A stretch of 64,000 nucleotides of DNA from Arthrobacter citreus (GTDB lineage: Bacteria; Bacillota; Bacilli; Bacillales; Bacillaceae_G): positions 2,294,001 through 2,358,000 of the forward strand of contig CP053688.1 of assembly GCA_013200995.1 (NCBI GenBank), written 5' to 3'. A program made the translations under genes and the position numbers. The notes under the pieces were generated by a model. It worked only from the letters and a program-made list of their open reading frames with translations. It was not told where the DNA came from and did not search any database. This document shows, one piece after another, positions 596 through 39,206 of the stretch (position 1 is the stretch's first letter; each line of letters starts with the position of its first letter).

Positions 596-3500
596 CTATT
601 TACTTAAACCCAACTTTTCCAAAATACTGTCTAACGTTTCACCTTTATAAGTAGTCTTCGCTTTGGGTACAACTTGAACAGTTTTATTTTGTAGTCCGAA
701 GTTTTTAATAATAAAATCCATATCCTTTTTATCTACTACTTTATCAAAGTTAAAGTCTGCAGTAGCTTTATTTGTACCCCAATATGTTTGGACAGCTAAC
801 GCATCTAAAATATCAATTACGTTATCTTTATTTGAGTCACCTGCGGCAGCAATTGGCATTGCTACAAGTAGATCTTTACCAACCAATTCTCCTCTTACTT
901 CATCAGATAAATTGACTTGTTTGTACATTGTAAAATGACCAGGTACATCTACTTTTATTGTATAATCATTTTTTTCAGCTTTAAAACCATCAGCTTCAAA
1001 TACACCATTTTGATTATTGATTGGTGCTTCGACAATCGTTTTATTGTCATATGAACTAACAGTAACTTTTGCACCTAATGACCTTTGATCTAAATTAACA
1101 TTAGTTTGACTAGTAGAAGGATCCATTGTACCTTCTAAACTTAAAGAACCTTCTAATTTCGAAATTGTTGTTTTCGTTTTATATCCTTCCATATAAGTAT
1201 AAACATTTCCCGTCTCAACATTTGATTGATCAATTGTCGTAGAATTAATGAGATGCCATGAGAACGGGGTACTTACCATATATTTATTTAATGTTTTTAT
1301 ATCGAAATTAAATAATTGTAAATCCTCAGGAAGTTGTTTATTACCTAAATAATTAAAAGTAAATGTGTATTGGAGTACATCTGGCCAATTTGTTGGTGCC
1401 GTTGTTACTGTAACGTTTGCTTCACCATATTGCTTAACGGCGGCATTCACTTTCACATTTTCAATTTCAGCTTGATCTGAAAAAACTGGTAATGAAATTT
1501 TGGTTGTTTTTAAGTTTTTAATATTATTTGAACGAACGCTATAATTAACCGTATCACCCGTCGTGATATTTTGTTTATTTGCTTTTAAATAATAGTATGG
1601 GTACGTATCTTCCACGAAAACTACTTTTAACATATTTGAAGCGTCAGCAGATGGGTTTTTCGCAGCATCCATACCATAAAATTGAACTTGTAATGGTTGA
1701 AATTGACTGTTAACTAGAATTTGATCAGTGTAATTTCCGTTTTTGTCAGTGTTTATTGGATTTGCAGGAAATCCTCCAAAAAACGATACAACTGAATTAC
1801 TAGATTGATCAACAGATATACCATAACGATTTGCCTCTTCAACTTCTGGATCTTTTACATTAATGTTAAAATCATATAGAAACTGTCCGTTTGAATCTAA
1901 TTGACTATTATTATATTCAATTACTTTTTGTTCTAAATGATCAAAACTGCTTGTAAGTGATGGTGCTCCAAGTTCGTATAAGAAATCTGAAGCTGCTGAA
2001 AATATTTTGCCATTTTCATTAGTACCTACTAACCTTAACTTATAATGTCCCGTTTTTATTGTCTCCGTTTCACTACTAATTGGATTTTTTGAATCTCCAG
2101 TAAATGGATAGTAAACAGTACTAAACCCTCTTGGGATAAAATATGATTGGTTTTCATTTAATTGTAAAGCATCAAATGAACCTACTAATCCAAGATCCTG
2201 TCCAGTAATTGGATCTTGGATGACTACATCTAAAGTTTTCATATGTGACTTTAATTCAAATGAGAAACCGAGAAATGGAACCATAGTTTCTGGCCATGAA
2301 TAGTCAGTTGAAAATAATGGATTCTCTACTTTAAATGACTCAATTCCCTCGTTGACTACCCTCACTCCGAACGGTATTTGATATTGCTCCGTTTGATCTT
2401 CATTATTTGTAAAAACTACATATCCTTCATAAGTTCCTTTTTCAGCTGTTTTAGGAATGTTCAAATCAAATTTAACAGACTTTTGACTGATTCCGTTTAA
2501 TTTTATCGAAGTAGGTCCTGACAACGTTACATTATTTAATGCAGCATCTTTTGATCCTCTCTGACCAGTTTGAAATTTAACATTAACATTAAATGTTTTA
2601 GCTTTTTCACTTCGGTTTTTTAATGTAATATTTCTAGAGTCAGAAATGTCTTGGTCATTAAAACTAAATGATCCAAAGCTCATTCCACCCGTCAGTTCCT
2701 CAATGAATTTTTGTTTACCGTTAATCATATTTGGTGTTTTATCCTTTACTATTAATTCCACATTCGAATGAATAGCTTCATACGCATCTACTCTACCACT
2801 TCCCACCTCGAATACACTATATGCTTTTGACAATGGATCAGCCGTATTCATCAGAATCGACTTCACATCAGACGGGGTGAGGTCTTTATTCGATTGAAGT
2901 AATAAAGCAGACACCCCAGTAACATAAGGTGTTGCCATGGATGTACCAGATAAGCGCTCATATGCAAATTGATAATCCTTTGCTTTTGTACCATCCACAG
3001 TTTTATCGTTGATGTAAAATGGAACTGTAGAAAGTATTGAAACGCCTGGTGCAGTCAGTTCAGGTTTAATATCATAATTAATCCTAGATGGTCCCCTTGA
3101 ACTAAAATTAGCTAAATCATCTGATGCAGTTTGAAGCTTTGAAAAATCACCAAATGTAAAATCTGATTTCCCTTCTTTTATTGAAGCAGAAATCGATAAG
3201 CCATCTTCATTAGATATTGAAAAGGTTGGAATTGCGTCCATCGATTCACCTAATAACTCTTTGATGGCACCTTCTGATTTATTTGCTTCATCATTATACA
3301 TAATGACTCCAGCAGCACCGTTTGCTTTTGCATTTTTAATTTTATCCATTAAAGCAATTGATCCCCGTTTTATAAAGGCAATCTTCCCTTTAACATCTTT
3401 TCCTGTAAAATTATACATATTACCTAATCCTACATCTACAAGTTGATATGTTTTACCTTTTAATGTCGTTAAGTCATCTAAATAGTTTTGAGCCATTTGC

Positions 3501-4765
3501 CTTAATAAGTAATTTTTATTGTTATTTACTCCAGCGTATTGATATAGATTGATTGCTACTGAAGAAGCACCAACAGTTAATGCTAAGGCTGCTGTTCCAG
3601 GGGCTCCAACTGTGTACATATTATCGCCACTATTTCCAACGGCTACAACAGTCGTCACTCCACTAATTACAGCATTATTTACAGCGATAGATGTAGGGAA
3701 TAAAGGATTATTAATTGTCGCACCTAATGACATGTTTATGACATCCATACCATCTTTTACAGCTTGATCAATTGCTGCAATAATTCCATCACTGTCACCA
3801 CCACCGTATGGTCCAAGTACACGATATGCATAAATATCTGCATCAGGCGCTACTCCAACCTTTTTATATTCACTATCTGCTACACCTTGTCCGGCGATTA
3901 TTCCAGCTACATGGGTGCCATGCTCGGTATAATAAGCTGATGTTCCATCAAATTCTGGCTCTCCAGATTTCTTCCAATCTTCATAAGTTGTTTCCATCGG
4001 ATCATTATCATTGTCAATAAAGTCATAACCGCCCTTATAAGCGTCTTTTAAATCAGGGTGGTTGTAATCAATTCCTGTATCTAAAATACCGATTTTTATT
4101 CCTTTTCCCGTAAATCCTTCAGCATGTAAGCGATCTACTCCATCATATGGCGTGTAATTTGCAATGTTGGACTCGTCCGTTTTGAGTGAACCACTTTTGT
4201 CATCTTCAGGGGGTGGATCAATTGTAAATTTTTGATTACTCCAAACTTTCTTTACTGCTTTCAATTTTAATAGTTTACTAATTTGATTAGCTGGCAAACT
4301 CATTGAAACACCATTAAACGCATTTTTATATGTACGTTTAATCTTAAAATCTACTTTTTTATTATCATCAGCTAACTGTTGAAGATCTTGTTTGAATGTT
4401 TCATGATCATGTTCAACTAAATTATTCGCTTCAGCTTCAGGCAGTTGTTTACCTTCAATACTGGCTTCGAGTCTAGCAATTTTAGCCGGTTTATTAACAA
4501 ACTCAACTATGACAGGAGTTTGCACTGCTGACGATAGATTAATATCTGAAGAAATTTTAAGTCCAGTTTCATCAGTCGTTGATAACTGGTGTAAGGCTGC
4601 TCTTTGAGCTGAAGTTAAATTAGCAAGTAGATCCTCCGCTTTTGAGTAACTATTTGCCTTTGTGACAATTGAATTTTGACCAATTGAACCAAAAACTACG
4701 CTAGTTGATAAAGCCAATATTGTTAACACTTTTATAATCTTATGTCTTTGCACATGCTTATTCAT
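596..4765 (-). CDS. Secreted S8 subtilisin-family serine protease with cohesin-like and dockerin-like C-terminus (1389 aa)
   Basis: Extracellular endoprotease. It has an N-terminal signal peptide (about 1-37, basic then hydrophobic) and an LTSAQRAAL motif near 50-58. An I9-type propeptide spans about 80-180. The S8 catalytic domain has Asp229 (ILDTGID), His282 (HGTHVAG), Asn378 and Ser609 (SGTSMATP). A PA-type insert lies between Asn378 and Ser609 (about 420-545). The remaining 700 residues are beta-rich: an Fn3-like block, a cohesin-like stretch (about 1060-1195) and a carboxypeptidase-regulatory-like block with VPGHF. A dockerin-like pair of Ca-binding loops follows (about 1309-1358), then a conserved tail YKGETLDSI. 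It resembles B. subtilis Vpr in its N-terminal half but is about 580 residues longer. It is separated from the upstream paralogue by a terminator, so it is probably transcribed alone. The domain names beyond S8, PA and dockerin are my reading of fold patterns. Confidence 0.93.
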   Translation of the reverse strand: MNKHVQRHKIIKVLTILALSTSVVFGSIGQNSIVTKANSYSKAEDLLANLTSAQRAALHQLSTTDETGLKISSDINLSSAVQTPVIVEFVNKPAKIARLEASIEGKQLPEAEANNLVEHDHETFKQDLQQLADDNKKVDFKIKRTYKNAFNGVSMSLPANQISKLLKLKAVKKVWSNQKFTIDPPPEDDKSGSLKTDESNIANYTPYDGVDRLHAEGFTGKGIKIGILDTGIDYNHPDLKDAYKGGYDFIDNDNDPMETTYEDWKKSGEPEFDGTSAYYTEHGTHVAGIIAGQGVADSEYKKVGVAPDADIYAYRVLGPYGGGDSDGIIAAIDQAVKDGMDVINMSLGATINNPLFPTSIAVNNAVISGVTTVVAVGNSGDNMYTVGAPGTAALALTVGASSVAINLYQYAGVNNNKNYLLRQMAQNYLDDLTTLKGKTYQLVDVGLGNMYNFTGKDVKGKIAFIKRGSIALMDKIKNAKANGAAGVIMYNDEANKSEGAIKELLGESMDAIPTFSISNEDGLSISASIKEGKSDFTFGDFSKLQTASDDLANFSSRGPSRINYDIKPELTAPGVSILSTVPFYINDKTVDGTKAKDYQFAYERLSGTSMATPYVTGVSALLLQSNKDLTPSDVKSILMNTADPLSKAYSVFEVGSGRVDAYEAIHSNVELIVKDKTPNMINGKQKFIEELTGGMSFGSFSFNDQDISDSRNITLKNRSEKAKTFNVNVKFQTGQRGSKDAALNNVTLSGPTSIKLNGISQKSVKFDLNIPKTAEKGTYEGYVVFTNNEDQTEQYQIPFGVRVVNEGIESFKVENPLFSTDYSWPETMVPFLGFSFELKSHMKTLDVVIQDPITGQDLGLVGSFDALQLNENQSYFIPRGFSTVYYPFTGDSKNPISSETETIKTGHYKLRLVGTNENGKIFSAASDFLYELGAPSLTSSFDHLEQKVIEYNNSQLDSNGQFLYDFNINVKDPEVEEANRYGISVDQSSNSVVSFFGGFPANPINTDKNGNYTDQILVNSQFQPLQVQFYGMDAAKNPSADASNMLKVVFVEDTYPYYYLKANKQNITTGDTVNYSVRSNNIKNLKTTKISLPVFSDQAEIENVKVNAAVKQYGEANVTVTTAPTNWPDVLQYTFTFNYLGNKQLPEDLQLFNFDIKTLNKYMVSTPFSWHLINSTTIDQSNVETGNVYTYMEGYKTKTTISKLEGSLSLEGTMDPSTSQTNVNLDQRSLGAKVTVSSYDNKTIVEAPINNQNGVFEADGFKAEKNDYTIKVDVPGHFTMYKQVNLSDEVRGELVGKDLLVAMPIAAAGDSNKDNVIDILDALAVQTYWGTNKATADFNFDKVVDKKDMDFIIKNFGLQNKTVQVVPKAKTTYKGETLDSILEKLGLSK

Positions 4766-4826
4766 TGTCTTCCTCCAAGGTCATTTAAGATAAATAGAGA
4801 CATTCATTTTTCTTTCAAATACTTCT

Positions 4827-4858
4827 AAAAAAAGAAAAGCCACTCATCGACTTTTCTT
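4827..4858 (-). terminator. Terminator between two S8 protease genes
   Basis: An AGAAAAG / CTTTTCT stem followed by a T-run on the minus strand sits just after the stop codon at 4866. The two adjacent proteases are therefore probably separate transcription units. Confidence 0.7.
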
Positions 4859-4865
4859 TCTTTTA

Positions 4866-7800
4866 TTAAATTCCTAATTCTTTTAATAAGTCTTCTAATG
4901 ATTTGCCTTTATATTTTTTTAGAGGGTTGGGCGCATTATCAACTGATTTATTTTGTAGTAAGTAGTTCTTCTGAACAAATTTCAAATCATTTCCATCAAC
5001 TGTACCGTCAAAATTAATATCTGCACTTCGCTTGTTAGTTCCCCAATATGTCTGAATAGCCAATGCATCCAAAATATCAATAACTTGGTCTTGGTTTACA
5101 TCTCCTGCTATAAGATCAGGTGCAGTGATATATTGATTTTTTGCATAGACCGTTCCGTTATATTCATAGCCAATATTTGTTCTAATCTTCGTTAAAAAAT
5201 GACCTGGAACATTAAATTCAATTGTAAATAAGTCCTTACTTAGGGGGATTTTATCAAAAACATATCTTCCATAAGTATCAATCGGTGCATTGTATTTTGT
5301 TCCATTTGAGTCATAAATATTAACTGTTGCCCCAACTTTATCCCAATCTCTTGAACCAGGATATCCTCCGTTTTCAGGGTCACCTTCATAAAATCCCTGA
5401 GGATTAACATATCCGTTTACTCTAGAAAGCTTCGGAAATACTTTAAAACTATATCCACCGTTTAATACTTCTAAGTTTTCATTACTAGAATTTGTGACAT
5501 TTACGGTTGGATTAATAGTCCCTCCTGTGTAAAATTCTTTTTCTTGAACTTTTAATGTTACCTCTGCAACCTCCGAGTGATCTAACTGACCACTAGGGAT
5601 GTTAAAGTTAACGATTACATCATCACCTTTAACATCAATTGAAGCCTTGCTTGCATAATTGTCAGCAAGTTTTGCGTCAACTAACTGTACACTCTTCATT
5701 CCAAAATAATCACCAAAAGTCCATTTCACATTTTTAATATCATTTAAATTATCCAAATAAATTTTAGCTTTAATTGTATCTCCCGCTGTTGCCGTAACTA
5801 CATCACTTTTAGCATAAGTAACTGGAGTACCTTCTTTCACAAAATAATACTGTTTAGACTCTTTGTTTCCGGACATATCATAACCATCAAATCGAAGAGG
5901 CAACTCATTTAATGTATCGTCTATAGTAATTTCATCTTTATATTTGCCTTCAGCATCCATTGAGATTGGTGAAGAAGGGAAAGCCCACTCACCATAGTAA
6001 TAAACGAGCGAATTAGATGATTGGTCGATTGAAATTCCTTGATTCTTCATTTCATCAACTTTTGAATCTTGAATCTGAATCTCAAATGGGTATGTTTTTT
6101 GACCTGGTTTATACTCAATAAATGGAGATAAACCATCAAGTGAACTTTTAAAGGTCGGTGTATCTAAATCTATAAATAAGTCCTCAGTTTCGATGAATTT
6201 TTTTCCAGAAAAACTAGTGCCAATGAATTTTAATTTATACTGTCCTGGTTGAATATCGCTTGTTTCATCTGAGATAGGCTGTTTTGAGTTTCCTGTAAAT
6301 TTATAATACTGTCCATTAAATGCTATTAAGTCATAATCGACATTGTCATATGCATATGTTAAATCGACCGTTCCAACAAACCCAATATCTTTACCAGTTT
6401 TAGCGTCTTGTAAAACAATATCCATTTTCTCCATTGGTGATTTCAAGTTAAATTTAGTATAGATCCATTGAGCTCGCATAAAATCCCATCCACCTTGATT
6501 TAATTGATCAGGAGAATAGGCTGGATTTAAAACCTCCATGGTATTAAACCCTTCTTCAGATGTTCGTACACTAAATGGAATTCGATATACTTCTGATGAA
6601 TTAGCATTATTTGTTAATGTGATATAGCCTTCATAAATTCCTTTTTTTGCATCTTTAGGTACGGTCATTCTTACATTAATTGTTTTTGAGCCATTACCAT
6701 TAATATCGATTTTATTTGGAATATTTAGCTCTACTCCATTGTCTTTTAAACTGTTTGAGCCTTTCGTTTCGCTAATTGAAAGAGTAAATGATTTTTTTTC
6801 ATTTTTATTGTTTTCGATTTTTATTGATTTTGAAACATTTATTTTGCCATTTTCATAATGATTGTCAAAGCTAAGCCCACCAGTAAATTCTTTCACCTTC
6901 ATTAAGCGTTCTGCTCCTGGTACATAGGCCTTATCCTTGATTTTAAGAATTAGATCACTATGTATAGCCTGGTAAGGATCTACTCGTCCAGCACCTACTT
7001 CAAAAACACTATAATCACCATTTAGTGGATCAGCTGTATTCATCAAAATCGATTTAATATCTTCAGGCTGCAACTTAGGATTGGCTTGAAGCATTAAAGC
7101 TGCAACACCAGCTGTAAATGGAGTAGCCATTGATGTACCTGAATACCTTGAATAAGCATATTGATAATTATCTTGATTTTCTGGGTTAATCATATAAGAA
7201 GGAACAGTTGAAAGAACACTTACCCCCGGAGCAGTAATTTCAGGCTTCATATCAAAAGTTTGTCTTGCAGGTCCTCTTGAACTGAAATCAACTAAATGAT
7301 CTCCTTCAGTCCGTTTTTCCGAATAATTTGAGAAACTGATTGTGTTCTTTCCAGCTGCTAACATGGACCTAACTTTTTCTCCATCATTTTTTGTTAAAGA
7401 AAATGATTGTACATAGTTAACAGACTCTCCAAGATTTACCCCTATTTGACCATCAATATTATTCGTAATTAAGACCCCTACTGCACCTTTTTCTTTTGCG
7501 TTCATTATTTTTTCATCAAAGGTAATATCCCCTCGATTAATAAGTGCAATTTTTCCATTTAAATCTTTATCTGCAAAGTCAGATGCATAACCTAATCCAA
7601 CATCCACTATCTCATAAGACTTACCAACTAGATTTTTAAATTGTTCATCGTAATGTCGGGCCATTCCTACTAATTCAATTGGCGATTCACTTCCTATATT
7701 TCCATTCAAAGTTGATTCTTGTATTGGAACATCACTTGCTCCTACAGTCAAAGCAAGTGCAGCTGATCCAGGTGAGCCTAATGAATAAGCACCCGGTCCT

Positions 7801-8921
7801 TCATTACCCGCTGCTACAACTGCAGTAACTCCATTTAGTACCGCATAATTAATGGCTGTACTAGTTGGAAAATACGGATCATTTACTGCTGCTCCTAATG
7901 ACAAATTAATGACATCCATTCCATCATGTACTGCTCTTTCAATCCCCTCAATAACGGCTTCAGTAGTACCAGAACCATATGGGCCGAGCACGCGATAAGC
8001 ATATAAATCTACATCAGGAGCTACTCCTTCAACAGTAATTTTATCGTTAGTACTCTGACCAGCTATCGTACCAGCTACATGTGTACCATGTGAGGTGTAA
8101 TAAGTTGAACCATTTATTTCTGGATAGCCAGAAGCTTGCCAATCTTTATAAGTTGTCTCCATGGGATCATTATCTTGATCAACAACATCGTAACCACCTT
8201 TGTATGCTTTCTTTAAATCAGGGTGGTTATAATCGATTCCTGTATCAATTACCCCTACTTTTATGCCCTTACCAGTAATACCTTCTTTATGTAATTTATC
8301 AATCTTTAAATAAGAAAGGCTCTCAACCGAAGTGTTTCCACTAGTAGTCGTACTTTTAGTTTCCACATTTTGAATAGGATCGACCTTGTATTCAACATTC
8401 TTATAGACTGCTTTCACAACTTTAGAAGACAACAGCTGTTTAATTTGATTTGCTGGCAGTTTCATTGCAACACCATTTAAAACAGTATTAAAATTTGTTG
8501 TAATTTGATGATTTACTTTTTTACTTTTTGAAGTAGGAAAAATGGTTTGAATATCTTTTTTAAACTGTTCATGTTCTTGTACAACTTGCTCGTCCGCTTT
8601 TTCTTTTGATAGTTTTTTACCTGCTAACTCAGCATCAATTAATGCAACTTTTGAAGGTTTTGCTTGAAATTGGACGATAACAGAAACTTCATTGTCTTTT
8701 TTTAACTCATCTTTTTTAAAGCCAATCAATCCGGACTGATCGTTATATTCTATTTTATTTAAAGCATTTCTTTGCTCAGTAGTTAAAGAAGAAAGTACAT
8801 CTTCAGCTTTTATCTCTGCAGCTTTAGCCACTGTATTGAAAGGATGATTCACGGCAGGAAATATCATGCCTAAAGTTAAGGAGATAGCTGCTGCTTGTTT
8901 AATGAGTTTATTGTTCTTCAT
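4866..8921 (-). CDS. Secreted S8 serine protease, second paralogue (1351 aa)
   Basis: Same architecture as its neighbour at 596-4765. A signal peptide ends near residue 34, followed by LTTEQRNAL at about 46-54 and an I9-like propeptide. The catalytic residues are Asp226, His278, Asn373 and Ser597, all in canonical motifs, with a PA insert between Asn373 and Ser597. The cohesin-like stretch is about 1034-1163 (GDTIKAKIYLDNL start). A VPGHF-containing beta block and a dockerin-like pair (GDVNQDQVID, then DINFDGTVD; about 1273-1321) follow. The tail ends in KKYKGKSLEDLLKELGI. The start is an ATG preceded by AAGATGG. It is a tandem duplicate of the adjacent gene, but diverged enough to be old. 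All catalytic residues are retained, so it is expected to be active. Its substrate is unknown. Confidence 0.93.
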   Translation of the reverse strand: MKNNKLIKQAAAISLTLGMIFPAVNHPFNTVAKAAEIKAEDVLSSLTTEQRNALNKIEYNDQSGLIGFKKDELKKDNEVSVIVQFQAKPSKVALIDAELAGKKLSKEKADEQVVQEHEQFKKDIQTIFPTSKSKKVNHQITTNFNTVLNGVAMKLPANQIKQLLSSKVVKAVYKNVEYKVDPIQNVETKSTTTSGNTSVESLSYLKIDKLHKEGITGKGIKVGVIDTGIDYNHPDLKKAYKGGYDVVDQDNDPMETTYKDWQASGYPEINGSTYYTSHGTHVAGTIAGQSTNDKITVEGVAPDVDLYAYRVLGPYGSGTTEAVIEGIERAVHDGMDVINLSLGAAVNDPYFPTSTAINYAVLNGVTAVVAAGNEGPGAYSLGSPGSAALALTVGASDVPIQESTLNGNIGSESPIELVGMARHYDEQFKNLVGKSYEIVDVGLGYASDFADKDLNGKIALINRGDITFDEKIMNAKEKGAVGVLITNNIDGQIGVNLGESVNYVQSFSLTKNDGEKVRSMLAAGKNTISFSNYSEKRTEGDHLVDFSSRGPARQTFDMKPEITAPGVSVLSTVPSYMINPENQDNYQYAYSRYSGTSMATPFTAGVAALMLQANPKLQPEDIKSILMNTADPLNGDYSVFEVGAGRVDPYQAIHSDLILKIKDKAYVPGAERLMKVKEFTGGLSFDNHYENGKINVSKSIKIENNKNEKKSFTLSISETKGSNSLKDNGVELNIPNKIDINGNGSKTINVRMTVPKDAKKGIYEGYITLTNNANSSEVYRIPFSVRTSEEGFNTMEVLNPAYSPDQLNQGGWDFMRAQWIYTKFNLKSPMEKMDIVLQDAKTGKDIGFVGTVDLTYAYDNVDYDLIAFNGQYYKFTGNSKQPISDETSDIQPGQYKLKFIGTSFSGKKFIETEDLFIDLDTPTFKSSLDGLSPFIEYKPGQKTYPFEIQIQDSKVDEMKNQGISIDQSSNSLVYYYGEWAFPSSPISMDAEGKYKDEITIDDTLNELPLRFDGYDMSGNKESKQYYFVKEGTPVTYAKSDVVTATAGDTIKAKIYLDNLNDIKNVKWTFGDYFGMKSVQLVDAKLADNYASKASIDVKGDDVIVNFNIPSGQLDHSEVAEVTLKVQEKEFYTGGTINPTVNVTNSSNENLEVLNGGYSFKVFPKLSRVNGYVNPQGFYEGDPENGGYPGSRDWDKVGATVNIYDSNGTKYNAPIDTYGRYVFDKIPLSKDLFTIEFNVPGHFLTKIRTNIGYEYNGTVYAKNQYITAPDLIAGDVNQDQVIDILDALAIQTYWGTNKRSADINFDGTVDGNDLKFVQKNYLLQNKSVDNAPNPLKKYKGKSLEDLLKELGI

Positions 8922-9261
8922 TCGACACCATCTTTCTTAAATTTTCAATAAACGATCGTATAATATTCCTTTCTAAATTTTCAGAAAAATCTTTATAAAT
9001 TTATGATAAATTACTTAAATAGTCACCAGCAATGGGGGTTATTGATTCTAGAAATCTCCTACTTTAGTAACAAAGAGACTTAAATAGCGGATTGATTTAG
9101 ATGAAAAATAACCGAAGTGAGTCGAACTTATTTATTAAAATGGGGTTATTACCAAATAAGGTGATATTTTTTTAAGAAGTAGTTGCATATAAACATAAAA
9201 TTATAAAATTGGCCCCACTTAACGTACAATTACCTGCAAAAAAATAGATATTTTTTAACAT
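8922..9261. other. Intergenic region upstream of the second protease
   Basis: Non-coding and AT-rich. It holds the promoter region of the leftward protease gene, including an imperfect palindrome TTTCTAAATTTTCAGAAA (8970-8987) next to a possible -10 (TATTAT on the minus strand). Nothing else was recognised. Confidence 0.4.
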
Positions 9262-9294
9262 AAAAAAAGCCTTGCATTCTAATACAAGACTTTT
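9262..9294 (-). terminator. Terminator of the RRNPP regulator gene
   Basis: An AAAGTCTTG / CAAGGCTTT stem with a T-run on the minus strand, about 17 bases after the stop codon at 9311. It leaves little room for a co-transcribed signal-peptide gene of the NprX type. Confidence 0.75.
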
Positions 9295-9310
9295 AATTGA
9301 ATCTATTTTT

Positions 9311-10555
9311 TTAAACAAGCTCATTGTTTTTCCTGAATCTATTTACAATTGACTGAGTGAACTGATTAGCTCGTTCGACATCGCCTTTTTTGAAATAGTA
9401 ATCAAACAATTTAATTTCATATGTCTCTTCGGCAAGCCCATAACCCTTATTCTTAAAAAATGGATACGCAGCCGACTCTAAATAATCATAATATTCGTCT
9501 TTCAAATTTTGAATTTTAAATACATGTAACTGAAAATAATGTAAATACATTGTATCATTTAACTTCTTAGCTAATGAAAGACCTTCGTGTGCTACTTTTA
9601 GCAACTCTGTTTCAGATTGTAGACCTAACTTTGTAGCAGTATTTAGATAACCTTCTAATGTTACGAGATAATGTGGATGACTAGGATCACGTAGCATCAA
9701 AGACTGACTATAATTTTCGAATGCTTTTTCGTAGTACCCATTTCGAAATAGTTGATAAGCGTAATTATGAAGAAGTTTTGCCTTTTGATCAATTAATCCT
9801 AAATTGTCGGCCATTTCTATTAGTCTTGGGTAACCAGACTCCTTTGTATCAAAAATTTCTTCTTGTTCAACTTGGATTAGCATTAGCATTTCTGTTTCAA
9901 GTACTCTATTAAAGCTGTTTGCACTAGTAAAAAATTGAAGTGCTTTATTAGCATAATGATAAGCTAGTATTCGGGAATTCATACACATATAAGCAACAGC
10001 TAAATCATAATAATATTCAGGATTATTATAATAAATTAGATTAATTTTCTTCAAATAAGAAATAGCTTGATTATATTCACCTTGATAATCGAGGTAAAAC
10101 TTACCTTTAATATGATTTCGCATGTTTTGATCATATAGCGAAAGTTCGCGCCAACAGTCCATTTCCTCTATCAAAGATTTAGCAATCTTACTTTCTCCAA
10201 TTAATAAATAATATCTAGTTAAAATTAACGTGTATGCTTGATAGAAATCCGGGATTTTTAATAGATTGATTCTTTCTAACTTAGTTTTTATGCTATTTGC
10301 CTTTGAATTTAGCTTTAAAATAATTGAATCATGCCATTCATTTAATAATGAGTCCAAGCTTAAGTATGCATCAATCTCATCTTGCATATCGATTTGTAAT
10401 CTTTTAGCTAACAACTCGATTGTTTCTTCTGATACTTCTGTAATACCACGTTCAATTTTGCTAACATGGGTACTTGAACAAATTTGGTTCCCTAAATCCG
10501 CTTGCCTTAATCCTTGAAGTTCACGGTAAAATTTAATGATTTTCCCTTGGATCAT
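9311..10555 (-). CDS. NprR/RRNPP-type HTH-TPR transcriptional regulator (414 aa)
   Basis: Cytoplasmic DNA-binding regulator. Residues about 1-60 form an XRE-type helix-turn-helix (RELQGLRQADLGNQICSSTHVSKIERG, split by the turn). The rest is all-helical with tetratricopeptide-like repeats, for example the YNQAISYLKK and YYEKAFENYSQSL regions. Length and layout match NprR (about 420 aa) rather than PlcR (about 285 aa). Family members bind imported oligopeptides and control exoproteases, virulence or sporulation. The gene sits between exported protease genes and is divergent from the one at 10981. The start is ATG after a GGGGAG ribosome site. No cognate pre-peptide gene was found directly downstream, where a terminator follows at once. 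Control of the neighbouring proteases is inference from family and position. Confidence 0.8.
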   Translation of the reverse strand: MIQGKIIKFYRELQGLRQADLGNQICSSTHVSKIERGITEVSEETIELLAKRLQIDMQDEIDAYLSLDSLLNEWHDSIILKLNSKANSIKTKLERINLLKIPDFYQAYTLILTRYYLLIGESKIAKSLIEEMDCWRELSLYDQNMRNHIKGKFYLDYQGEYNQAISYLKKINLIYYNNPEYYYDLAVAYMCMNSRILAYHYANKALQFFTSANSFNRVLETEMLMLIQVEQEEIFDTKESGYPRLIEMADNLGLIDQKAKLLHNYAYQLFRNGYYEKAFENYSQSLMLRDPSHPHYLVTLEGYLNTATKLGLQSETELLKVAHEGLSLAKKLNDTMYLHYFQLHVFKIQNLKDEYYDYLESAAYPFFKNKGYGLAEETYEIKLFDYYFKKGDVERANQFTQSIVNRFRKNNELV

Positions 10556-10980
10556 GTTTTTCTCCCCTTGCTTTCTCCTCCTACGAGTATTTAACGTGAT
10601 AAAACAATTTCTCCCAATAACTTTCCTGTACTAAATCGTTTTATTTTATTTATATCACTATTTTTATCTTTTTCAATAACATTATTTAACTCTTACTAAA
10701 TTTCATATTGCCGCTCCCCCGAATAGTTGAAAATATCGCATTAAAAAAAGAAAAACCCCAAAACAGATTGTTACTTTTCTAACCTATTTAAAACAATACA
10801 AGGCAATATTCCCTTACCTTAATACATTTCCCACAAGAATGTTAGGTTAATAGTCCTTACAGAAACCCCATTTGTAATCTATTAATCTAATTATTAACAT
10901 TAATACCGTAGAAATTTTTCGAAAATTTAGAATGTGTTTTTTCGGAATTTTTTTAATTACATAATGAAAAGAGGAAAACT
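10556..10980. other. Divergent intergenic region between the RRNPP regulator and a protease gene
   Basis: 425 bases without a plausible gene. It holds the leader of the rightward protease and a near-palindrome of A and T runs around TCGAAAA at 10913-10933. The related sequence GAAAATTTAGAA is also upstream of the second protease. A GAGG ribosome site lies just before 10981. Confidence 0.4.
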
Positions 10981-13900
10981 ATGAACAAGAAGAAACAAAG
11001 ATGGTTTAGCCAAACAGTAAAAAAATCAACCCCCATTGTATTATCATTAGGGCTAATCCTTCCGTCGACACACTCTGGCTTGACAAAAGCAGCTGCTAAA
11101 ACCAAAAGTAATACAGAAATCAATGCAGAAAAAATTCTTGCCTCCTTAACGGATGAACAACGAGCAGCATTACAAAAGTCTGAAGCAAAGGAGCTATATG
11201 GACTTCAAGGGTTTGATGAGAAAGAGCTAAAAGATAACAAAGAGATTTCCGTTATCGTTCAGTTTAAATCTAAACCAGGACAAGCAGCTGTTGTTGATGC
11301 TGCTTTAGATGGAAAATCGTTAACAAGAGATGTAGCACAAAGCAAGGTCGATCAAGAGCATTCCACATTCTTAAATGATCTCAAACAAATCTTTCCTGCT
11401 AAAGCTGGTATGCTACGATCGCTTCCTTCAACTGGAAAAGGTTTAAATATGGTAGAAACACCTTACCAAATCAAGCGTTCCTTCAAAGCTTCCTATAATG
11501 GAGTTTCAATGACGCTACCAGCAAACCAAGTTGAATCACTTATGCAGTCAGATGTTGTTCAAGCAATTTACAAAGATACAACATTTACAATTGAACCACC
11601 TTCTATTGCAGAATCTAATGGAAAACCTGTTAAATCGGATAAACCGGAGTCAACTGTGACTGGTGATCCTGTTTCATTCTTAGGTGTAGACAAGCTACAC
11701 GAAGAAGGTATCACAGGTAAAGGAGTCAAAGTAGCTGTCATCGATACAGGAATTGACTACAATCATCCTGATCTCAAAGATGCTTACAAAGGTGGCTATG
11801 ACTTTGTAAATAATGACAGTGATCCGATGGAAACGACCTATGAGGATTGGAAAAAATCAGGATTGCCTGAGTTTTATGCTAATGGCTCCGCCTATTACAC
11901 CGAACACGGCACTCATGTATCTGGTACAATCGCTTCACAAGAGAAAAGTAATAGTGATGTTTCCGTCACAGGAATTGCTCCAGACGCTGACTTATATGTT
12001 TACCGCGTACTTGGTCCATACGGTTCGGGCACTTCCTCTAATATTATAGCTGCAATCGACCAAGCAGTAATATCAGGAATGGATGTTATGAATCTTTCAT
12101 TAGGTGCTGACCTTAATGATCCATACTTTCCAACTAGTACAGCGATTAACTATGCTGTTTTAAGTGGCGTAACCGCAGTAATTGCAGCCGGAAACTCCGG
12201 ACCTGGGTTCTATACTTTAGGATCTCCTGGAGCGGCAGCTTTAGCACTTACTGTTGGTGCAAGTGATATATCGATGCCAATTACAACCATGAAGGGTAAC
12301 GTTGCATCTGGATCATCGATTGACCTACAAACGATGGCAAGAAGTTTTTCTGATGATCTCACAACATTCAAAGGAAAAAGTTTTGAAATGGTTGATGTTG
12401 GTTTAGGTGGTGATGATGACTACACCAATAAAGATGTAACAGGCAAAATCGCTTTAGTCGAAAGAGGTACTTATGCACTGGCAGATAAGATTAAGTTTGC
12501 AAAAAAACATGGGGCGAAAGCAGTTCTCCTAACTAACAATGTTGAAGGCCATATTGGGGCTTATCTAGGCGAAGCAAGTGACTTTATTCCTACTTTCTCT
12601 GTAACACAACAAGACGGGCAAGCTTTAAAGACGCAAGTTGCTGGAGGTAACAATAAATTTACCTTTACTGATGTAACTGTTACCGAAACAGAGGGAGATA
12701 AGCTAGCGGATTTTAGTTCTCGCGGTCCTTCATTAGCCAACTTCGATGTAAAACCAGAAGTTGTCGCACCAGGTGTTAGTGTTCTCTCTACTGTACCTGC
12801 TTATATTACTAACACAAGTACACCTACTGATTACTCAAGTGCCTATGCTCGAATGAGTGGAACATCTATGGCGACACCTCATGTTGCAGGTATAGCAGCC
12901 TTAATGTTACAAGCTAATCCAAATTTGCAACCTGAGGATATTAAGACTCTTTTAATGAATACTGCAGATCCACTAAATGGAGACTATCTTCCTTATGAAC
13001 AAGGAGCAGGTCGAGTTGATCCTAATGAAGCGATTCATCCAAAAATGGAAGTTCAAGTTAAAGATGATACCCTCATTCCATTCGGAGAAGAAATGGTAAA
13101 AGTTGACGAAAAGACGGGCGGAATTAGCTTTGGTGAACTTTATACAGGTGAAGACCTTTCAATTAATAAAAAAATGACTTTGCAAAACTTTGAAAAAGAA
13201 AATAAAAAGTTTACAGCAACAGTTCATTTTCAATTGATAAAAGGAACTTCTGACCCAACTACTAGCGGAATAAAATTAGCCGTAGACCCAGTAATTCAAG
13301 TCAAGAAAAACGAATCTAAAAACGTAAACGTATCGCTTACTTTTCCAAAAACAGCAAAAGAAGGCGTCTATACTGGTTATATTATCTTAACTAACCAAAA
13401 AGATAAAAATGAGCAATATCGTATTCCTTTTAGTATACGAGCAGTTGAGGAAGGTTTTTATGGATATGCGCTCAATAAAGCTTCAACAACTTTAGAATAT
13501 AGAATTTCACAAACAGAACCGATGGGAATGGCTTCAGGTGCTGTTTCGCCTGCACTAACTTTTAATATGAAAACACCTATGAAAAAAATGGATATTGTGT
13601 GGCAAGATGGAAAAACCGGTCAAGATCTAGGTTATGCTACATCATTAGATCTATCAAAACTTAACACAAATACACAGATTATCTCTTTTCTAAGCATTCT
13701 TGGAAGCTATTATCCATTTACTGGTGATCCTGATCATCCGATTTCTGCAATTGCTCAAAACGCAAAACCAGGTTATTACAAGTTAAAATTGATTTCAACT
13801 TCAATGACTGGTAAAACATTTACCGGCTATCTTGATCATTATGTAGACATTGAACAGCCAGTAGTTACTACATCTTTAGATCAAGAGTCACCATTTCACG

Positions 13901-15174
13901 AATACAAACCTGGACAAGAAACGTATCCATTTTCAATGCAAATAACTGATCCACAAGTTAAAGAAATGCAAGATGCTGGGATGGATGTAGATTTCTCCGA
14001 TACTTCCTTTCAATATACATTTATAAATTCAGCTGAATCCAATTTTATTAATATGGATAAAGATGGAAAGTTTTCAGAAGACATTGTCATGCATCCAGAA
14101 TACCCAGTTCAAAGTTTCACGGTAAAAGGTAGAGATGTGGCTGTAAATAGTCCTGTTAAAAAACAATACTATTTTATCAAAGAGGGTACACCAAACGCAT
14201 ATATCACCAGCCCAATCAATGAAGTAAGGATGGGTGATACAGTGAAAGCAACTCTGAAATTAGATAATATATCTTCTCTGTCATCAGCTAACTGGACTTT
14301 CGCAAATCTAGATAAAAACTTTGAAATTGTCGATGCCAAACCAAATGCGGAGTTAAGCCAATACGGAGATGCAAAAGTGACTCTTACGAATTCAAGTACT
14401 CCAACTGTACAATTAGATCTACCAACAACAACTCAAATACAAGACAAAGTGGCTGCGGTCGATGTAACCTTAAAAGTGAAAGATGCTATTTTTGGTACAT
14501 CTATTAATCTAGATCCAACAGTTACGATTAACAACTCAGAAGGAACTACTAATTTAATTAAAGCAGGATATACATGGGGGTTATTATCTTCATTCTCTGA
14601 ACTTGAAGGTCCGCTTAATGCTGAAGGATTTTTAAATCCTGGTACAACAAATAATTATAAAAATGTAGATTGGCCAAATTCAGGTGCATCCATTAAACTG
14701 ACACAATCAAATGGAAACGTATTTGATATAACGCCGAATTTAGTGAAGGATGTCAACCGTTTCTCTATTTCAAAATTACCACTGACTGGTGATTCATGGA
14801 CATGGGAATTTACTTTACCAGGTCACTTTATGGTCAAAATTCCTATGATGTCTGGTTTTGAATACGATGGTACTCTGTATGGTCAACAAAAGAAACTTGC
14901 AAGCACCTACTTTATTAAACAGGCTGTTGCAGGAGATGTAAATCAAGATAATGTGATTGATGTTCTAGATGCACTATACATCCAAACATATTGGGGCACT
15001 AGCAAAAGAGAGGCCGATATTAATTTTGATGGAAAAGTTGATGTGAATGATTTGAATTTTGTAGAAAAGAACTATCTAAAACAAAATCAATATGTAGAGA
15101 ATGCACCTGAACCTCAAAAACAATATAAATCTGCTACTTTAGAAAGTATTAAAATTGCTTTAGGCGTACAATAA
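10981..15174 (+). CDS. Secreted S8 serine protease, third paralogue (1397 aa)
   Basis: The only plus-strand member of the family. A long signal peptide (about 1-39) precedes LTDEQRAAL at about 56-64. The catalytic residues are Asp255, His309, Asn405 and Ser629, and a PA insert lies at about 440-570. The propeptide is about 25 residues longer than in the other copies. The C-terminal half has the same order: Fn3-like block, cohesin-like stretch (about 1075-1210, with GDTVKATLKLDNISSL), VPGHF-like block (LPGHF here), dockerin-like pair (from about 1317; GDVNQDNVID and DINFDGKVD) and tail QYKSATLESI. It is transcribed divergently from the RRNPP regulator, making it the best candidate for direct control by that protein. 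A strong terminator follows at 15301. Confidence 0.93.
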   Translation: MNKKKQRWFSQTVKKSTPIVLSLGLILPSTHSGLTKAAAKTKSNTEINAEKILASLTDEQRAALQKSEAKELYGLQGFDEKELKDNKEISVIVQFKSKPGQAAVVDAALDGKSLTRDVAQSKVDQEHSTFLNDLKQIFPAKAGMLRSLPSTGKGLNMVETPYQIKRSFKASYNGVSMTLPANQVESLMQSDVVQAIYKDTTFTIEPPSIAESNGKPVKSDKPESTVTGDPVSFLGVDKLHEEGITGKGVKVAVIDTGIDYNHPDLKDAYKGGYDFVNNDSDPMETTYEDWKKSGLPEFYANGSAYYTEHGTHVSGTIASQEKSNSDVSVTGIAPDADLYVYRVLGPYGSGTSSNIIAAIDQAVISGMDVMNLSLGADLNDPYFPTSTAINYAVLSGVTAVIAAGNSGPGFYTLGSPGAAALALTVGASDISMPITTMKGNVASGSSIDLQTMARSFSDDLTTFKGKSFEMVDVGLGGDDDYTNKDVTGKIALVERGTYALADKIKFAKKHGAKAVLLTNNVEGHIGAYLGEASDFIPTFSVTQQDGQALKTQVAGGNNKFTFTDVTVTETEGDKLADFSSRGPSLANFDVKPEVVAPGVSVLSTVPAYITNTSTPTDYSSAYARMSGTSMATPHVAGIAALMLQANPNLQPEDIKTLLMNTADPLNGDYLPYEQGAGRVDPNEAIHPKMEVQVKDDTLIPFGEEMVKVDEKTGGISFGELYTGEDLSINKKMTLQNFEKENKKFTATVHFQLIKGTSDPTTSGIKLAVDPVIQVKKNESKNVNVSLTFPKTAKEGVYTGYIILTNQKDKNEQYRIPFSIRAVEEGFYGYALNKASTTLEYRISQTEPMGMASGAVSPALTFNMKTPMKKMDIVWQDGKTGQDLGYATSLDLSKLNTNTQIISFLSILGSYYPFTGDPDHPISAIAQNAKPGYYKLKLISTSMTGKTFTGYLDHYVDIEQPVVTTSLDQESPFHEYKPGQETYPFSMQITDPQVKEMQDAGMDVDFSDTSFQYTFINSAESNFINMDKDGKFSEDIVMHPEYPVQSFTVKGRDVAVNSPVKKQYYFIKEGTPNAYITSPINEVRMGDTVKATLKLDNISSLSSANWTFANLDKNFEIVDAKPNAELSQYGDAKVTLTNSSTPTVQLDLPTTTQIQDKVAAVDVTLKVKDAIFGTSINLDPTVTINNSEGTTNLIKAGYTWGLLSSFSELEGPLNAEGFLNPGTTNNYKNVDWPNSGASIKLTQSNGNVFDITPNLVKDVNRFSISKLPLTGDSWTWEFTLPGHFMVKIPMMSGFEYDGTLYGQQKKLASTYFIKQAVAGDVNQDNVIDVLDALYIQTYWGTSKREADINFDGKVDVNDLNFVEKNYLKQNQYVENAPEPQKQYKSATLESIKIALGVQ

Positions 15175-15549: not shown

Positions 15550-17019
15550 TTGAAAAATGCAGAAACTAATTCCATCCATAAAGATATTAATATTAATTTA
15601 AAAAATATAAAAAATGAATTTTCCAATGTATTTGATTTTAAAACAAGAACAATTACATTCAATAATAAACCTCTATGTATTGCTTTTATCGATACAATTT
15701 CAAATAAAGGTATTATCAACGAAAAAATTATAAAGATTCTTATTAATATAAAACAAGGTCAAATAATGACTGATCTACCGGTTTCAAATATTACCACCAC
15801 TACTGATTTCAATGAAATAAGGACCGCTCTTAGTAGTGGAAATACAATTTTAATAGCTGACGGGTCAAAAGAAGCATTTATTGTAGATACCGTTTCATTT
15901 GAAGTAAGATCATCAGATGAACCTGATAACGAAAAAATTATTACAGGTTCACATGACGGATTTGTTGAGAGTTTAAGTAAAAACATTAATTATCTTAGAA
16001 ATAGAATTAGAAGTTCGGATTTTAAAATAGAAATGGTACAAGTTGGAGAACCTGGTACAAATGTCGCAATTTTATATATAGACAATATCGTAAATAAAGA
16101 TATTCTTAACAATGTAAAAAATCGAATAAATTCTATTTACCTCAAAAATACTCTAACTCCTGGAAAGCTAGAAGAATTTATTGAAGATAAGTCCTATTCA
16201 CCTTTTCCACAATTATTAGAAACTGAACGTCCAGATCGAGTAGTCTCTAATTTAAACGATGGAAAAATTGCCGTGATTGTAGAAGGAAGTCCTACCGTTT
16301 CTGTTATGCCTGCTACATTCTTTATGTTTTTTCAAACTCCAGATGATTATAACGGCAGAGTCTTAATTGGGACATTTCTTCGTTTAACTAGACTTTTTAG
16401 TTTTTTTATTTGTATTTGTTTACCTGCAATTTATATAGCAATTGTTTCGTTTAGCTATGAAATTCTTCCATATGAATTAGTTACTACCATAAAAAATAGT
16501 ATCGAATATGTCCCTTTCCATCCATTTGTAGAAGCTATCCTTATGCAATTAACATTAGAATTATTAAGAGAAGCATCCATTCGACTACCAAGTCCAATTG
16601 CTCAAACCATTGGTATTGTTGGTGGACTCGTTATAGGTACGGCGATTGTAGAGGCAAATTTAGTTTCAAATACCATGACTGTTGTACTTGCAATTACAGC
16701 AGTAGCGTCATTTGTAGTTCCTGTTCACGAAATGAGTTTTTCACTTCGAATACTAAGTTTTCCAATGATGATCGTAGCCTCATTATATGGAATTGTAGGT
16801 ATAATATTTGGATTAATGCTTATTTTCATCCATTTAGTTAAGCTCGAATCATTTGGTTCTCCATATTTTTCTCCTTTGGCACCAATTCGACTTAAGGACT
16901 TAAAGGATACCATTATTCGGGTGCCGTTTTGGAGAATGAAATCTCGACCTACAAATGCACTTCCAAATGATCCTGTTCAAACCGATGGAACGAAGGGGTG
17001 GAAAAATGATAATTCATAA
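15550..17019 (+). CDS. GerA-family spore germination receptor subunit A (489 aa)
   Basis: First subunit of a nutrient germinant receptor of the spore inner membrane. A hydrophilic N-terminal domain (about 1-260) carries the family's GSHDGFVESL and RNRIRSSDFKIE-type motifs. A membrane domain follows, with hydrophobic segments near 280-310, 350-400 and 410-440. The length is typical of GerAA/GerKA proteins. The start is TTG, eight bases after a GGAGGTGG ribosome site; no ATG fits better. The next gene overlaps its end by 14 bases, and the three genes form a classic A-B-C operon. Which germinant it senses cannot be read from the sequence. Expression would be expected in the forespore, from family knowledge. 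Confidence 0.93.
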   Translation: MKNAETNSIHKDININLKNIKNEFSNVFDFKTRTITFNNKPLCIAFIDTISNKGIINEKIIKILINIKQGQIMTDLPVSNITTTTDFNEIRTALSSGNTILIADGSKEAFIVDTVSFEVRSSDEPDNEKIITGSHDGFVESLSKNINYLRNRIRSSDFKIEMVQVGEPGTNVAILYIDNIVNKDILNNVKNRINSIYLKNTLTPGKLEEFIEDKSYSPFPQLLETERPDRVVSNLNDGKIAVIVEGSPTVSVMPATFFMFFQTPDDYNGRVLIGTFLRLTRLFSFFICICLPAIYIAIVSFSYEILPYELVTTIKNSIEYVPFHPFVEAILMQLTLELLREASIRLPSPIAQTIGIVGGLVIGTAIVEANLVSNTMTVVLAITAVASFVVPVHEMSFSLRILSFPMMIVASLYGIVGIIFGLMLIFIHLVKLESFGSPYFSPLAPIRLKDLKDTIIRVPFWRMKSRPTNALPNDPVQTDGTKGWKNDNS

Positions 17020-20674: not shown

Positions 20675-23600
20675 TTAATTTATTCCCAGTTCCTTCTTAA
20701 TACTTTCTAAAGTTTGTGATTTATATTTCTTTTTAGGTGTTGGTGAATTTCCAATTGAAGTATTTCGCATTAAGTAATTATTCTCCACAAATGCCATATC
20801 TTTTTCATCAACTACACCATCATTGTTAATGTCTGCATCTCGTTTATTTGTACCCCAATAAACTTGTAAATAGATTGCATCCATTACATCAATCACTTCG
20901 TCTTTATTTACATCACCTGCATGGTTTTCATCCAAATGTGCTAACATTTGTACCCCAGCAGAATCGCCATTGATGTCTCTATTTATTTTCGTAGTTAATT
21001 TACTTGTAAGATGACCTGGCACTTTCACATATATGTCATAAGCTTTATCAGATAAAGGTATGTTATCAATCGTAAAGTATCCATTTGGAGTAATACTCGA
21101 CGCATTATATGTTTTACCATTTACATCTTGAGCGTAAACTTTTGCTCCAATCTTTGAGAAATCAATCGTCGGATCAAGCTGACCATTTTTCATGAAAGCT
21201 TCCGACATAATATTTCCATTTACAATTGATTGATTTGGTAAAACATTAAACGATTTATCTTTAAAACCGCGAATTAATGTAGTTGCCGTAGCATTTGATG
21301 TTTTCTTATATTTAAATGATGTTACATCAAATAAATAGCCGGTCTTTGAATAAAGTTTATCATTTGTCAATTTAAACGTGACATCTATAAAAGGTAAATC
21401 TTTATCAATAATTAAATCTCCTTGATCAATGGAGGCTCCTACTTTAACAGCTCCTGAACTTAATACAGGTGCTGTTAAATTAACTTTCACACCTTTTTCG
21501 TTGGCATATTTTTGAAAATTGTCGTTAATTTTAACATTTTGTAATGTAAAGTTGTCTTTATAAAAAGGCACAGTGTACTCTCCGGAAGCGAATTGTTTTA
21601 TATTGTTTATATTCAATGTCATTGTTATTTCATCACCAAGTCGGAGCTTATCTTTATTATAGGTTGGTACTGTATATTCAGTCCCCTCTTTTATGAACTT
21701 ATAGTTCTTAATGCCTTGTGGATAGCCATCAGATGCCGTTGCATCATCAAAGGCAAAAAGGTTGGAATCGATGTAACTCATTTTGTCTAATTCACTCTTT
21801 GTTGCAGGCATTCTAAAATTGCCATCTTTATCAATCGTAAGTAAATAATAGTTATAGAAGTTATACTCCCACCAAAGTACACCATTAGTAGATTGATCAA
21901 TATTTACACCTTTCTGTTTGAGTACATCAACCGTTGAATCGTAAATGTTTCCATGTACCCATATTGCAGGACCATCTATACCTGGTTCAGTCGTAAACAT
22001 TGAATCATTTACTTCGTATAGACCAGGTTTCATCGATAACTCTACTTTTGGAGGCGTATTGTCAATCATTACAATCGCATCCTTACTGTACGATTTACCT
22101 AGTTCATCATACCCAATCATTTCAAAAAGATAATCTCCTTCCGGTAGTTTCTTCTTTTCATCGGAAATTGGGTGATTTTTATCATTTGTGAACAAATAAA
22201 CTTCACCAGTAAATAGTGCATTAATGTAATAATCCCTATCTGTTAATAAGTTATCTGCATTCATACTTCCTACAATTCCAATTGGCTCACCTGTTTTTCC
22301 ATCTTTTACCAATACATCAATCGTTTTTAATGGGCTTGACAATTTGAAATAGACAGTTGTATATGGCGTCCAATACGGATGTTGATTATCTGGATTGTTG
22401 GAAATCATTGGTCTTCCCAATCTCATATAATCAAACCCTTTATCTCTTAAACTAATTGAAAATGGAATTTGATAGTTTTCTTCTTTATTCTTTGAATTGA
22501 CAAAACGTATAAATCCTTCATACCTTCCGAATGCCGCATTTTTAGGTATAGAAATCGTCGGATTAATTTCTGCAGATTTTCCTGCTTCTACCGACACTGT
22601 ACTTGGTACCTTTAATTGCACTCCATTTTTGACTGCATCTTGAACATCGCCTTTTGCACTCGATAACTCAACACTAACGTCGTACTTCTTTGACTCTTGT
22701 TTATTGTGATTCTCAATGACAACTTTTCGACTGTCTTCAATTTTCTTAGCTTCTCCTACATAGTGAGTTCCAAAAGCAATTGAACCTGTTTCTTCATCAA
22801 TTTCGACTAAATTGCCGTCTTGTTCATTCATCGTTTTGTCCTTAACTTTTAGTAATATATCAGAGTGGACTGCCTCATATACATCAATTCTACCTGTCCC
22901 AACTTCATTAACAGCATAATCCCCATTCATTTTATCTGCTGTATTCATTAATGCTTCTTTTACTTCAAAAGGTGTATAATCAGGATGTGCCTGCAAGATT
23001 AAAGCTGCAGCTCCAGCTACGTGTGGAGTAGCCATTGATGTTCCTGAAAGACGACCATATGCCATATCGTAATTCGTCCCGTCCTGTTTATCATTCATGT
23101 ATTCAGGAAGTGTAGAGAATATCGCTACACCAGGTCCTACGACATCTGGTTTAATGTCATCAGTTCCTTCTGCTGGACCTCTTGAACTAAAATCAGCTAG
23201 GTGATCTCCTTCTGATTTTACGCTACCTAATGTTTCGAATTTAATTTCTTTTTGTCCTTTTAAAAGTTCTCCGTCAGCTTTAGAGATGCGGAAGGTTGGA
23301 ATGTAATTCGGTCCCTCACCAATATAGACATCTATATTTCCATCAACATTGTTATATAAAATGGCTGCTTTTGCACCAGCTGCTTTCGCATTTTGTACTT
23401 TTTCATCTAAAGTATAGGTTCCGCGCTGGATCAGTGCTACCTTACCTGCTACATCTTTATTTGTATAATCGCTTTTTGCTCCTAATCCTACATCAACAAT
23501 CGGTAAAGTCGTATTCTGAAGTTCTTCTAATTTATCTGTATAATTTTCAGCTAATAACTGCATACTAGTAAACTTTTGATCTCCAGCACTTGCATTATAT

Positions 23601-39074: not shown

Positions 39075-39186
39075 CTCTTATTGAGAGTGGCGGAGGGACT
39101 GGCCCGATGATGCCCGGCAACCATTCAACGTTTTTTGTTGAAAAGGTGCTAATTCCTGCAAAGCAAATTGCTTTGGAAAATAAGAG
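39075..39186 (+). promoter_or_regulatory. SAM-I (S-box) riboswitch, first of a tandem pair upstream of metE
   Basis: CTCTTATTGAGAG opens the aptamer. GGAGGGACTGGCCCGATGA, GCCCGGCAACC, AAAGGTGCTAATTCCTGC and the closing TAAGAG follow in canonical order. P1 pairs CTCTTA with TAAGAG. The 3' side GAGAGG can instead pair with CCTCTC of the next hairpin, giving the expected antiterminator. Confidence 0.95.
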
Positions 39187-39206
39187 AGGATTCCATAAAT
39201 TTTGTA

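What the first reader, a model, noticed from the sequence alone, without database searches (positions are those of the whole stretch)
596..15174. Family of giant secreted proteases carrying both cohesin-like and dockerin-like modules
Seen: three of five 1351-1431 aa S8 paralogues lie here (others at 20675-24826 and 51241-55536). Each ends in a type I dockerin-like pair of Ca-binding repeats (GDxNxDxVIDxxDA and DxNxDxxVDxxD), and each has about 100-250 residues earlier a stretch opening GDTVxxxLxLxNI that reads like a cohesin fold. All Asp/His/Ser triads are intact. Known: cohesin-dockerin pairs assemble cellulosomes; Vpr-type proteases in Bacillus lack both. Inference: these proteases could bind each other, head to tail, into an extracellular protease complex, or anchor to a cell-surface cohesin outside this window. 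I know of no described Bacillus system of this kind.
Basis: partly seen in the sequence, partly recalled or inferred. Interest (0 to 1): 0.8.

Follow-up and report, generated by a model that had tools for sequence, protein, structure and literature searches.

The report
Proteases with built-in cohesin and dockerin
A soil bacterium gives about 4% of its genome to one family of large secreted proteases that each end in a cohesin and a dockerin, the socket and plug known from cellulosomes, yet these plugs and sockets do not look made for linking different proteases together.

Summary

The proposed assembly is not established. Family-type cohesins lie only in S8-type frames (59); no SLH domain was found. 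In 18 of 18 genomes picked for one copy, one ORF holds the only family-type cohesin and the only dockerin above cut-off. Dockerin is the most conserved part, cohesin the least; the presumed docking face is not specially conserved; the dockerin covaries with its own tail, hardly with the cohesin. I favour a self-contained C-terminal unit working in cis or between identical subunits. The closest solved relative, Vpr, forms active fibrils (PMC10657474). NprR-like regulators sit beside several members. Binding was not tested.

The parts
596..4765 (-). Protease 1 (P0001), 1389 aa: signal peptide, I9, S8 with PA insert, Ig-like arm, cohesin 1166-1621, X 845-1165, dockerin 683-844, tail 605-682
   Evidence: ORF, Pfam, domain coordinates
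4866..8921 (-). Protease 2 (P0002), 1351 aa: same layout; cohesin 5430-5846, X 5109-5429, dockerin 4947-5108, tail 4869-4946
   Evidence: residues 198-1351 modelled
10981..15174 (+). Protease 3 (P0003), 1397 aa: same layout; cohesin 14170-14592, X 14593-14928, dockerin 14929-15090, tail 15091-15171
20675..24826 (-). Protease 4 (P0004), 1383 aa: same layout; cohesin 21233-21697, X 20921-21232, dockerin 20759-20920, tail 20678-20758
51241..55536 (-). Protease 5 (P0005), 1431 aa: same layout; cohesin 51826-52299, X 51487-51825, dockerin 51325-51486, tail helix 51244-51324
   Evidence: C-terminal 352 residues modelled
9311..10555 (-). NprR-like HTH + TPR regulator, 414 aa, 390 bp upstream of protease 2 on the same strand
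   Evidence: HTH_3; PDB NprR 4gpk E 8.8e-10 over residues 69-412; spacing. That it controls the protease is inference

Best explanation
These are Vpr-type secreted subtilases extended at the C-terminus by an Ig-like arm and a cohesin–X–dockerin–tail-helix unit. SHOWN by computation: the domains and their folds; that the unit goes as one block, one cohesin and one dockerin per polypeptide; that no separate scaffoldin or family-type cohesin anchor is detectable in this genome; that the dockerin is the most constrained part; that dockerin and tail covary. INFERRED: the dockerin is held by the protein's own tail helix and X module and serves as a calcium-stabilised C-terminal stalk or cap for an enzyme working outside the cell; any cohesin-dockerin contact is in cis or between identical subunits, not a cellulosome-like code that mixes different proteases. 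In Gottfriedia the whole enzyme, stalk included, was multiplied to 56 copies, with arm and cohesin diversifying while catalytic core and dockerin stayed fixed, which suggests different substrates or partners on one chassis.
For: One cohesin and one dockerin in each of 56 members. 18 of 18 genomes chosen for one copy keep the unit without a second family-type cohesin or a second dockerin above cut-off. No SLH, no LPXTG-like motif in the last 60 residues in 56 of 56. Median pairwise identity dockerin 0.68 > S8 0.58 > tail 0.48 > arm 0.33 > X 0.29 > cohesin 0.22; distance correlation of cohesin with dockerin, other domains held fixed, 0.05, of dockerin with tail 0.48. Covariation on 311 sequences: dockerin-tail pairs 3.7 times expectation in the top 100, cohesin-dockerin 0.54 times. 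Tail helix and a defined tri-module, pTM 0.81.
Against: Twenty polar, non-ligand dockerin residues are strongly conserved (mean JS 0.60), more than a cap alone needs, which points to a common partner. Among the top 40 and 80 cohesin-dockerin pairs the docking strands are somewhat over-represented (0.43 and 0.36 against 0.27; 0.30 in the top 20). With strand 9 counted, the docking face is not significantly less conserved than the rest (p 0.14; p 0.006 without it). No positive control from a working cellulosome was run, and coordinates of the models were not available, so tail-over-dockerin contact is read from covariation only.
Confidence: 0.47

Rival explanations
1. Homotypic assembly: the cohesin of one molecule takes the dockerin of the next identical molecule, perhaps reinforcing a Vpr-like fibre, so that active protease is concentrated in the matrix.
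Against: Cohesin-dockerin covariation is depleted, where a homotypic contact should leave a signal; depth is limited (Neff 139). Domain arrangement differs from Vpr (rmsd 8.0). Vpr interface residues were not compared.
Confidence: 0.2
2. The dockerin binds one common non-cohesin receptor (wall, matrix or membrane component), while the variable cohesin and arm bind substrates.
Against: No receptor is known; dockerins known to me bind cohesins (recalled). The polar residues may instead face the X module and tail.
Confidence: 0.18
3. One reading: different paralogues bind each other head to tail into an extracellular protease complex.
For: 56 proteins each with both modules in one genome; near-uniform dockerins could fit many cohesins.
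Against: Module pair kept in single-copy genomes; cohesins 22% identical at the median, presumed docking face without special conservation, no cohesin-dockerin covariation.
Confidence: 0.12
4. A cellulosome-like system whose scaffoldin or anchor lies elsewhere in the genome.
For: Module order as in the CipA C-terminus; peptidase-cohesin-dockerin scaffoldins exist in cellulosome producers (PMC6780208 and PMC11557425, passages).
Against: Pfam and family cohesin profiles over the whole genome show no ORF with two cohesins and no cohesin with an SLH domain.
Confidence: 0.03

Closest known systems
Vpr, minor extracellular subtilase of Bacillus amyloliquefaciens / subtilis (PDB 8jmw; PMC10657474, abstract and sections 9 and 12 read)
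   Different: Vpr is about 800 residues and ends before the added arm and cohesin-X-dockerin-tail; its fibrils are shown, none are shown here
C-terminal Coh9-X-DocII of the CipA scaffoldin of Clostridium thermocellum (PDB 3kcp, 4fl4)
   Same: Same module order and the same three folds
   Different: CipA is a scaffoldin, not an enzyme; the domain arrangement of the model differs (rmsd 11-12 over 282-286 residues); a tail helix is added here
ScaO/ScaP scaffoldins of cellulosome producers and the S8-bearing A. mesophilus scaffoldin (PMC6780208, PMC11557425, passages)
   Same: Peptidase, cohesin and dockerin in one chain; ScaP2 even an X-dockerin
   Different: They sit inside full cellulosome systems with many partners; here no partner system is detectable
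'Planctosome' proposal for Planctomycetes (PMC6461901, passages)
   Same: Cohesin and dockerin linked to protein degradation instead of cellulose
   Different: Separate anchor, adaptor and peptidases; metallopeptidases; hypothetical
Sub_N-Subt-PA-Dockerin protein NP_691157.1 in a 2008 serine protease survey (PMC2605481, passages)
   Same: Same protease-PA-dockerin layout
   Different: One protein in a table, filed under cellulose degradation; the text has no occurrence of 'cohesin'

Membership tests
Cohesin (PF00963) | Profile match | tested here: met
   Protease 5 segment 25.6 bits over cut-off 24.1; 13 of 43 segments at E<=0.01; family profile to PDB cohesins 1.5e-9 (designed Ig proteins also appear, 8.7e-5)
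Cohesin (PF00963) | Cohesin fold | tested here: met
Cohesin (PF00963) | Conserved dockerin-binding face | tested here: inconclusive
   Outward docking-strand residues JS 0.31 against 0.45 (without strand 9) or 0.39; no positive control run
Dockerin (PF00404) with X module | Two calcium-loop repeats and X-dockerin fold | tested here: met
Dockerin (PF00404) with X module | Binds a cohesin | not testable with these tools
   No complex modelling or binding assay available; covariation gives no support
Cellulosome-type cohesin-dockerin system | Scaffoldin with several cohesins | tested here: not met
   59 family-type cohesins, one per family member and three in other S8-type frames; Pfam cohesin adds one in a glycosidase-like protein
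Cellulosome-type cohesin-dockerin system | Cell-surface anchor (cohesin with SLH or sortase signal) | tested here: not met
   SLH 0 matches; no LPXTG-like motif in the last 60 residues of 56 members. Other anchor types not searched
Vpr-type subtilase | I9, S8, PA insert and Vpr-like assembly domains | tested here: met
   501 of 517 Vpr residues aligned, model 1-720
Vpr-type subtilase | Forms active fibrils | not testable with these tools
   Known for Vpr from PMC10657474; interface residues not compared

The most novel reading that the evidence does not exclude
A scaffoldin-free, quorum-controlled protease armoury: each protease self-assembles into a Vpr-like fibre clasped by its own cohesin-dockerin pair between identical subunits, perhaps after the capping tail is removed, and in Gottfriedia this chassis was multiplied to 56 enzymes with diversified arms, some under adjacent NprR-like receptors and possibly maturing pheromone propeptides as well.
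Probability: 0.12. Interest if true: 0.85.

Novelty: new variant of a known kind. Interest (0 to 1): 0.57.

Why it matters
Cohesin and dockerin are kept together in one enzyme in 50 of 397 sampled genomes of the order (14 of 135 genera), often with no other partner, and were multiplied to 56 copies in one genome. What cohesins and dockerins do outside cellulosomes is an open question; here it can be tested in aerobic relatives of Bacillus, with single-copy species as clean controls. The family also offers one protease chassis with many natural variants.

Tried and rejected
Covariation between cohesin and dockerin: run twice (218 sequences, Neff 108; 311 sequences, Neff 139). The first run showed many cross-domain pairs of every sort and was treated as noise; in the second, cohesin-dockerin pairs are depleted overall, with a mild excess of docking strands among the best of them, which I do not count either way.

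X module alone against the PDB: mainly weak hits to designed ankyrin proteins, judged an artefact of composition; its identity rests on the X-dockerin match of the model.

Positive selection on the cohesin docking face: not found, omega 0.35.

NprX-like pheromone gene next to the seven regulators: small frames listed, none convincing.

Positive control for face conservation: no ORF with many cohesins turned up among 398 sampled genomes of the class, so none was run.

Limits: in the 18 single-copy genomes I ran PF00404 and the family cohesin profile, not PF00963 (only G071 was also, where it had no match), so a very different cohesin could be missed. In one search at most five candidates per genome were scored. 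The inward/outward assignment of strand residues is mine, from hydrophobicity; the sheet order of cohesins and the recognition positions of dockerins are recalled.

Literature: ten searches. Among the papers listed I saw none that describes this family as a group; most hits beyond the listings were not seen. Peer et al. 2009 (PMC3035643) is not held and was not read.

Full report
WHAT IS THERE. The five ORFs are as described. Pfam gives I9, S8, PA and Dockerin_1 over cut-off in all five. The genome the window lies in (5,467,583 bases, 3 contigs) has 62 dockerin matches, 78 S8 matches, some of them pieces of one gene, and 17 Pfam cohesin matches at E<=0.001, one of them in the window. As 'family' I took homologues of protease 2 with over 700 bits and over 1240 aa in the fetched regions: 56 proteins, 47 on contig C1 and 9 on the 250-kb contig C2. 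They cover at least 233,664 bp, 4.27% of the genome; catalytic Asp, His, Ser and oxyanion Asn are present in 56 of 56. Of the 62 dockerins 56 lie in the 56 members; the others lie in a gene split by a stop, two giant S8 frames (2827 and 2328 aa) and three short frames. The nearest named relative of protease 2 is in Gottfriedia acidiceleris 1-17 (96%).

WHO COULD BIND WHOM. Here a family-type cohesin occurs 59 times: once in each of 56 members, in the split gene, and in S8 frames of 2328 and 2864 aa. One other cohesin (40.1 bits) lies in a 1244-aa protein with carbohydrate-binding modules and no dockerin match. SLH: none. Dockerins occur in 13 of 13 genomes of the genus, 2 to 62 each; the tri-module profile matches 15 of 19 genomes of the family at E<=1e-5 and 50 of 397 sampled genomes of the order at E<=1e-20, 14 of 135 genera (at most five candidates scored per genome). 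I took all 18 genomes with one match: 18 of 18 have one family-type cohesin and one dockerin over cut-off, in the same frame (G667 has a second dockerin below cut-off). A unit kept where no such partner is found is unlikely to owe its upkeep to paralogue mixing or to a scaffoldin.

CONSTRAINT. Median pairwise identity among the 56: dockerin 0.68, S8 0.58, tail 0.48, propeptide 0.44, arm 0.33, X 0.29, cohesin 0.22. Median dN/dS over 14 close pairs: dockerin 0.048, S8 0.084, propeptide 0.117, tail 0.126 (13 pairs), arm 0.129, cohesin 0.173, X 0.266: purifying selection everywhere. On 311 sequences outward residues of the presumed docking strands have mean JS 0.31; the opposite sheet 0.45 without strand 9 (p 0.006) and 0.39 with it (p 0.14). 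Pooled omega: docking face 0.35, opposite sheet 0.11 (0.14 with strand 9), dockerin 0.08. So the face that should recognise a near-uniform dockerin is not specially kept. Mean-field covariation recovers cohesin strand pairs (9-32, 14-27, 73-81, 74-79) and strong dockerin-tail pairs (298-327, 294-323, 265-315, 264-325); cohesin-dockerin pairs come at 0.54 of expectation in the top 100, with a mild excess of docking strands among the top 40 and 80 of them. Positions 264 and 265 are positions 10 and 11 of the first calcium loop, the canonical recognition pair (recalled), so the tail may cover that surface.

READING. The modules are genuine; assembly is not established. I favour a self-contained C-terminal unit. 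Homotypic assembly on the model of Vpr fibrils is the most interesting rival. The conserved polar dockerin residues (mean JS 0.60 over 20 positions) are not well explained by a cap alone and keep a common receptor open.

REGULATION. The 414-aa protein at 9311-10555 is NprR-like (PDB 4gpk, E 8.8e-10 over residues 69-412), 390 bp upstream of protease 2 on the same strand. Seven such regulators occur in the fetched regions: five lie 264-390 bp upstream of a family member on its strand; the other two lie about 250-270 bp from a split gene and from a fragment of the family (coordinates). No pheromone gene was recognised. NprR is a quorum sensor of the RNPP family (PMC4970707, listing), extracellular proteases mature such pheromones (PMC11343458, listing), and Vpr is said to process a signal peptide precursor (PMC10657474, section 12).

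PRIOR WORK. Peptidase, cohesin and dockerin in one chain are known in ScaO/ScaP scaffoldins (PMC6780208, passages) and in an A. mesophilus scaffoldin with an S8-like domain (PMC11557425, passages). A peptide-degrading cohesin/dockerin complex was proposed for Planctomycetes (PMC6461901, passages); cohesin and dockerin proteins of unknown use are reported in ANME archaea (PMC9012536, passages). A 2008 survey lists one Sub_N-Subt-PA-Dockerin protein (PMC2605481, passages). A Bacillaceae subtilase survey has no occurrence of dockerin, cohesin or Gottfriedia (PMC9549277, term search). Hence a new variant of a known kind.

Noticed in passing
window 9311-10555 (-); also C1:2406829, C2:24863, C1:2893629, C1:1195867, C1:2739429, C1:2254599 of G000: NprR-like quorum-sensing regulators beside the proteases: seven in the fetched regions, five 264-390 bp upstream of a family member on the same strand.
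   Followed up: partly
G000 contig C2 (250,451 bp): Nine of the 56 members lie on a separate 250-kb contig, likely a plasmid (not tested); a relative is named as plasmid-borne in Bacillus sp. N447-1 (P0183).
   Followed up: no
G000 C1:2408331-2412560, C1:1042623, C2:63733, C2:26383, C2:167249-169137: A family gene split by a TAA stop and several family fragments: the family is being lost as well as gained.
   Followed up: no
L104 3748-6396 and 6455-8926 (G004): In the Gottfriedia genome with the fewest dockerins, neighbouring genes encode one secreted protein with a dockerin and one with a clear cohesin (E 4.1e-19): a separate two-protein pair, with an HTH/TPR regulator nearby.
   Followed up: partly
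L066 1980-5714 (-) (G000 C1:1570479-1574213): A 1244-aa secreted protein with carbohydrate-binding modules holds the genome's one clear cohesin outside the proteases (40.1 bits cut out, missed in the whole-protein scan).
   Followed up: partly
window 15550-19212 (+): Three-gene GerA/spore permease/GerAC germination operon directly after protease 3.
   Followed up: no
window 39075-39486 (+) and 39557-41944 (+): A SAM riboswitch followed by a cobalamin riboswitch in tandem upstream of a cobalamin-independent methionine synthase gene.
   Followed up: no
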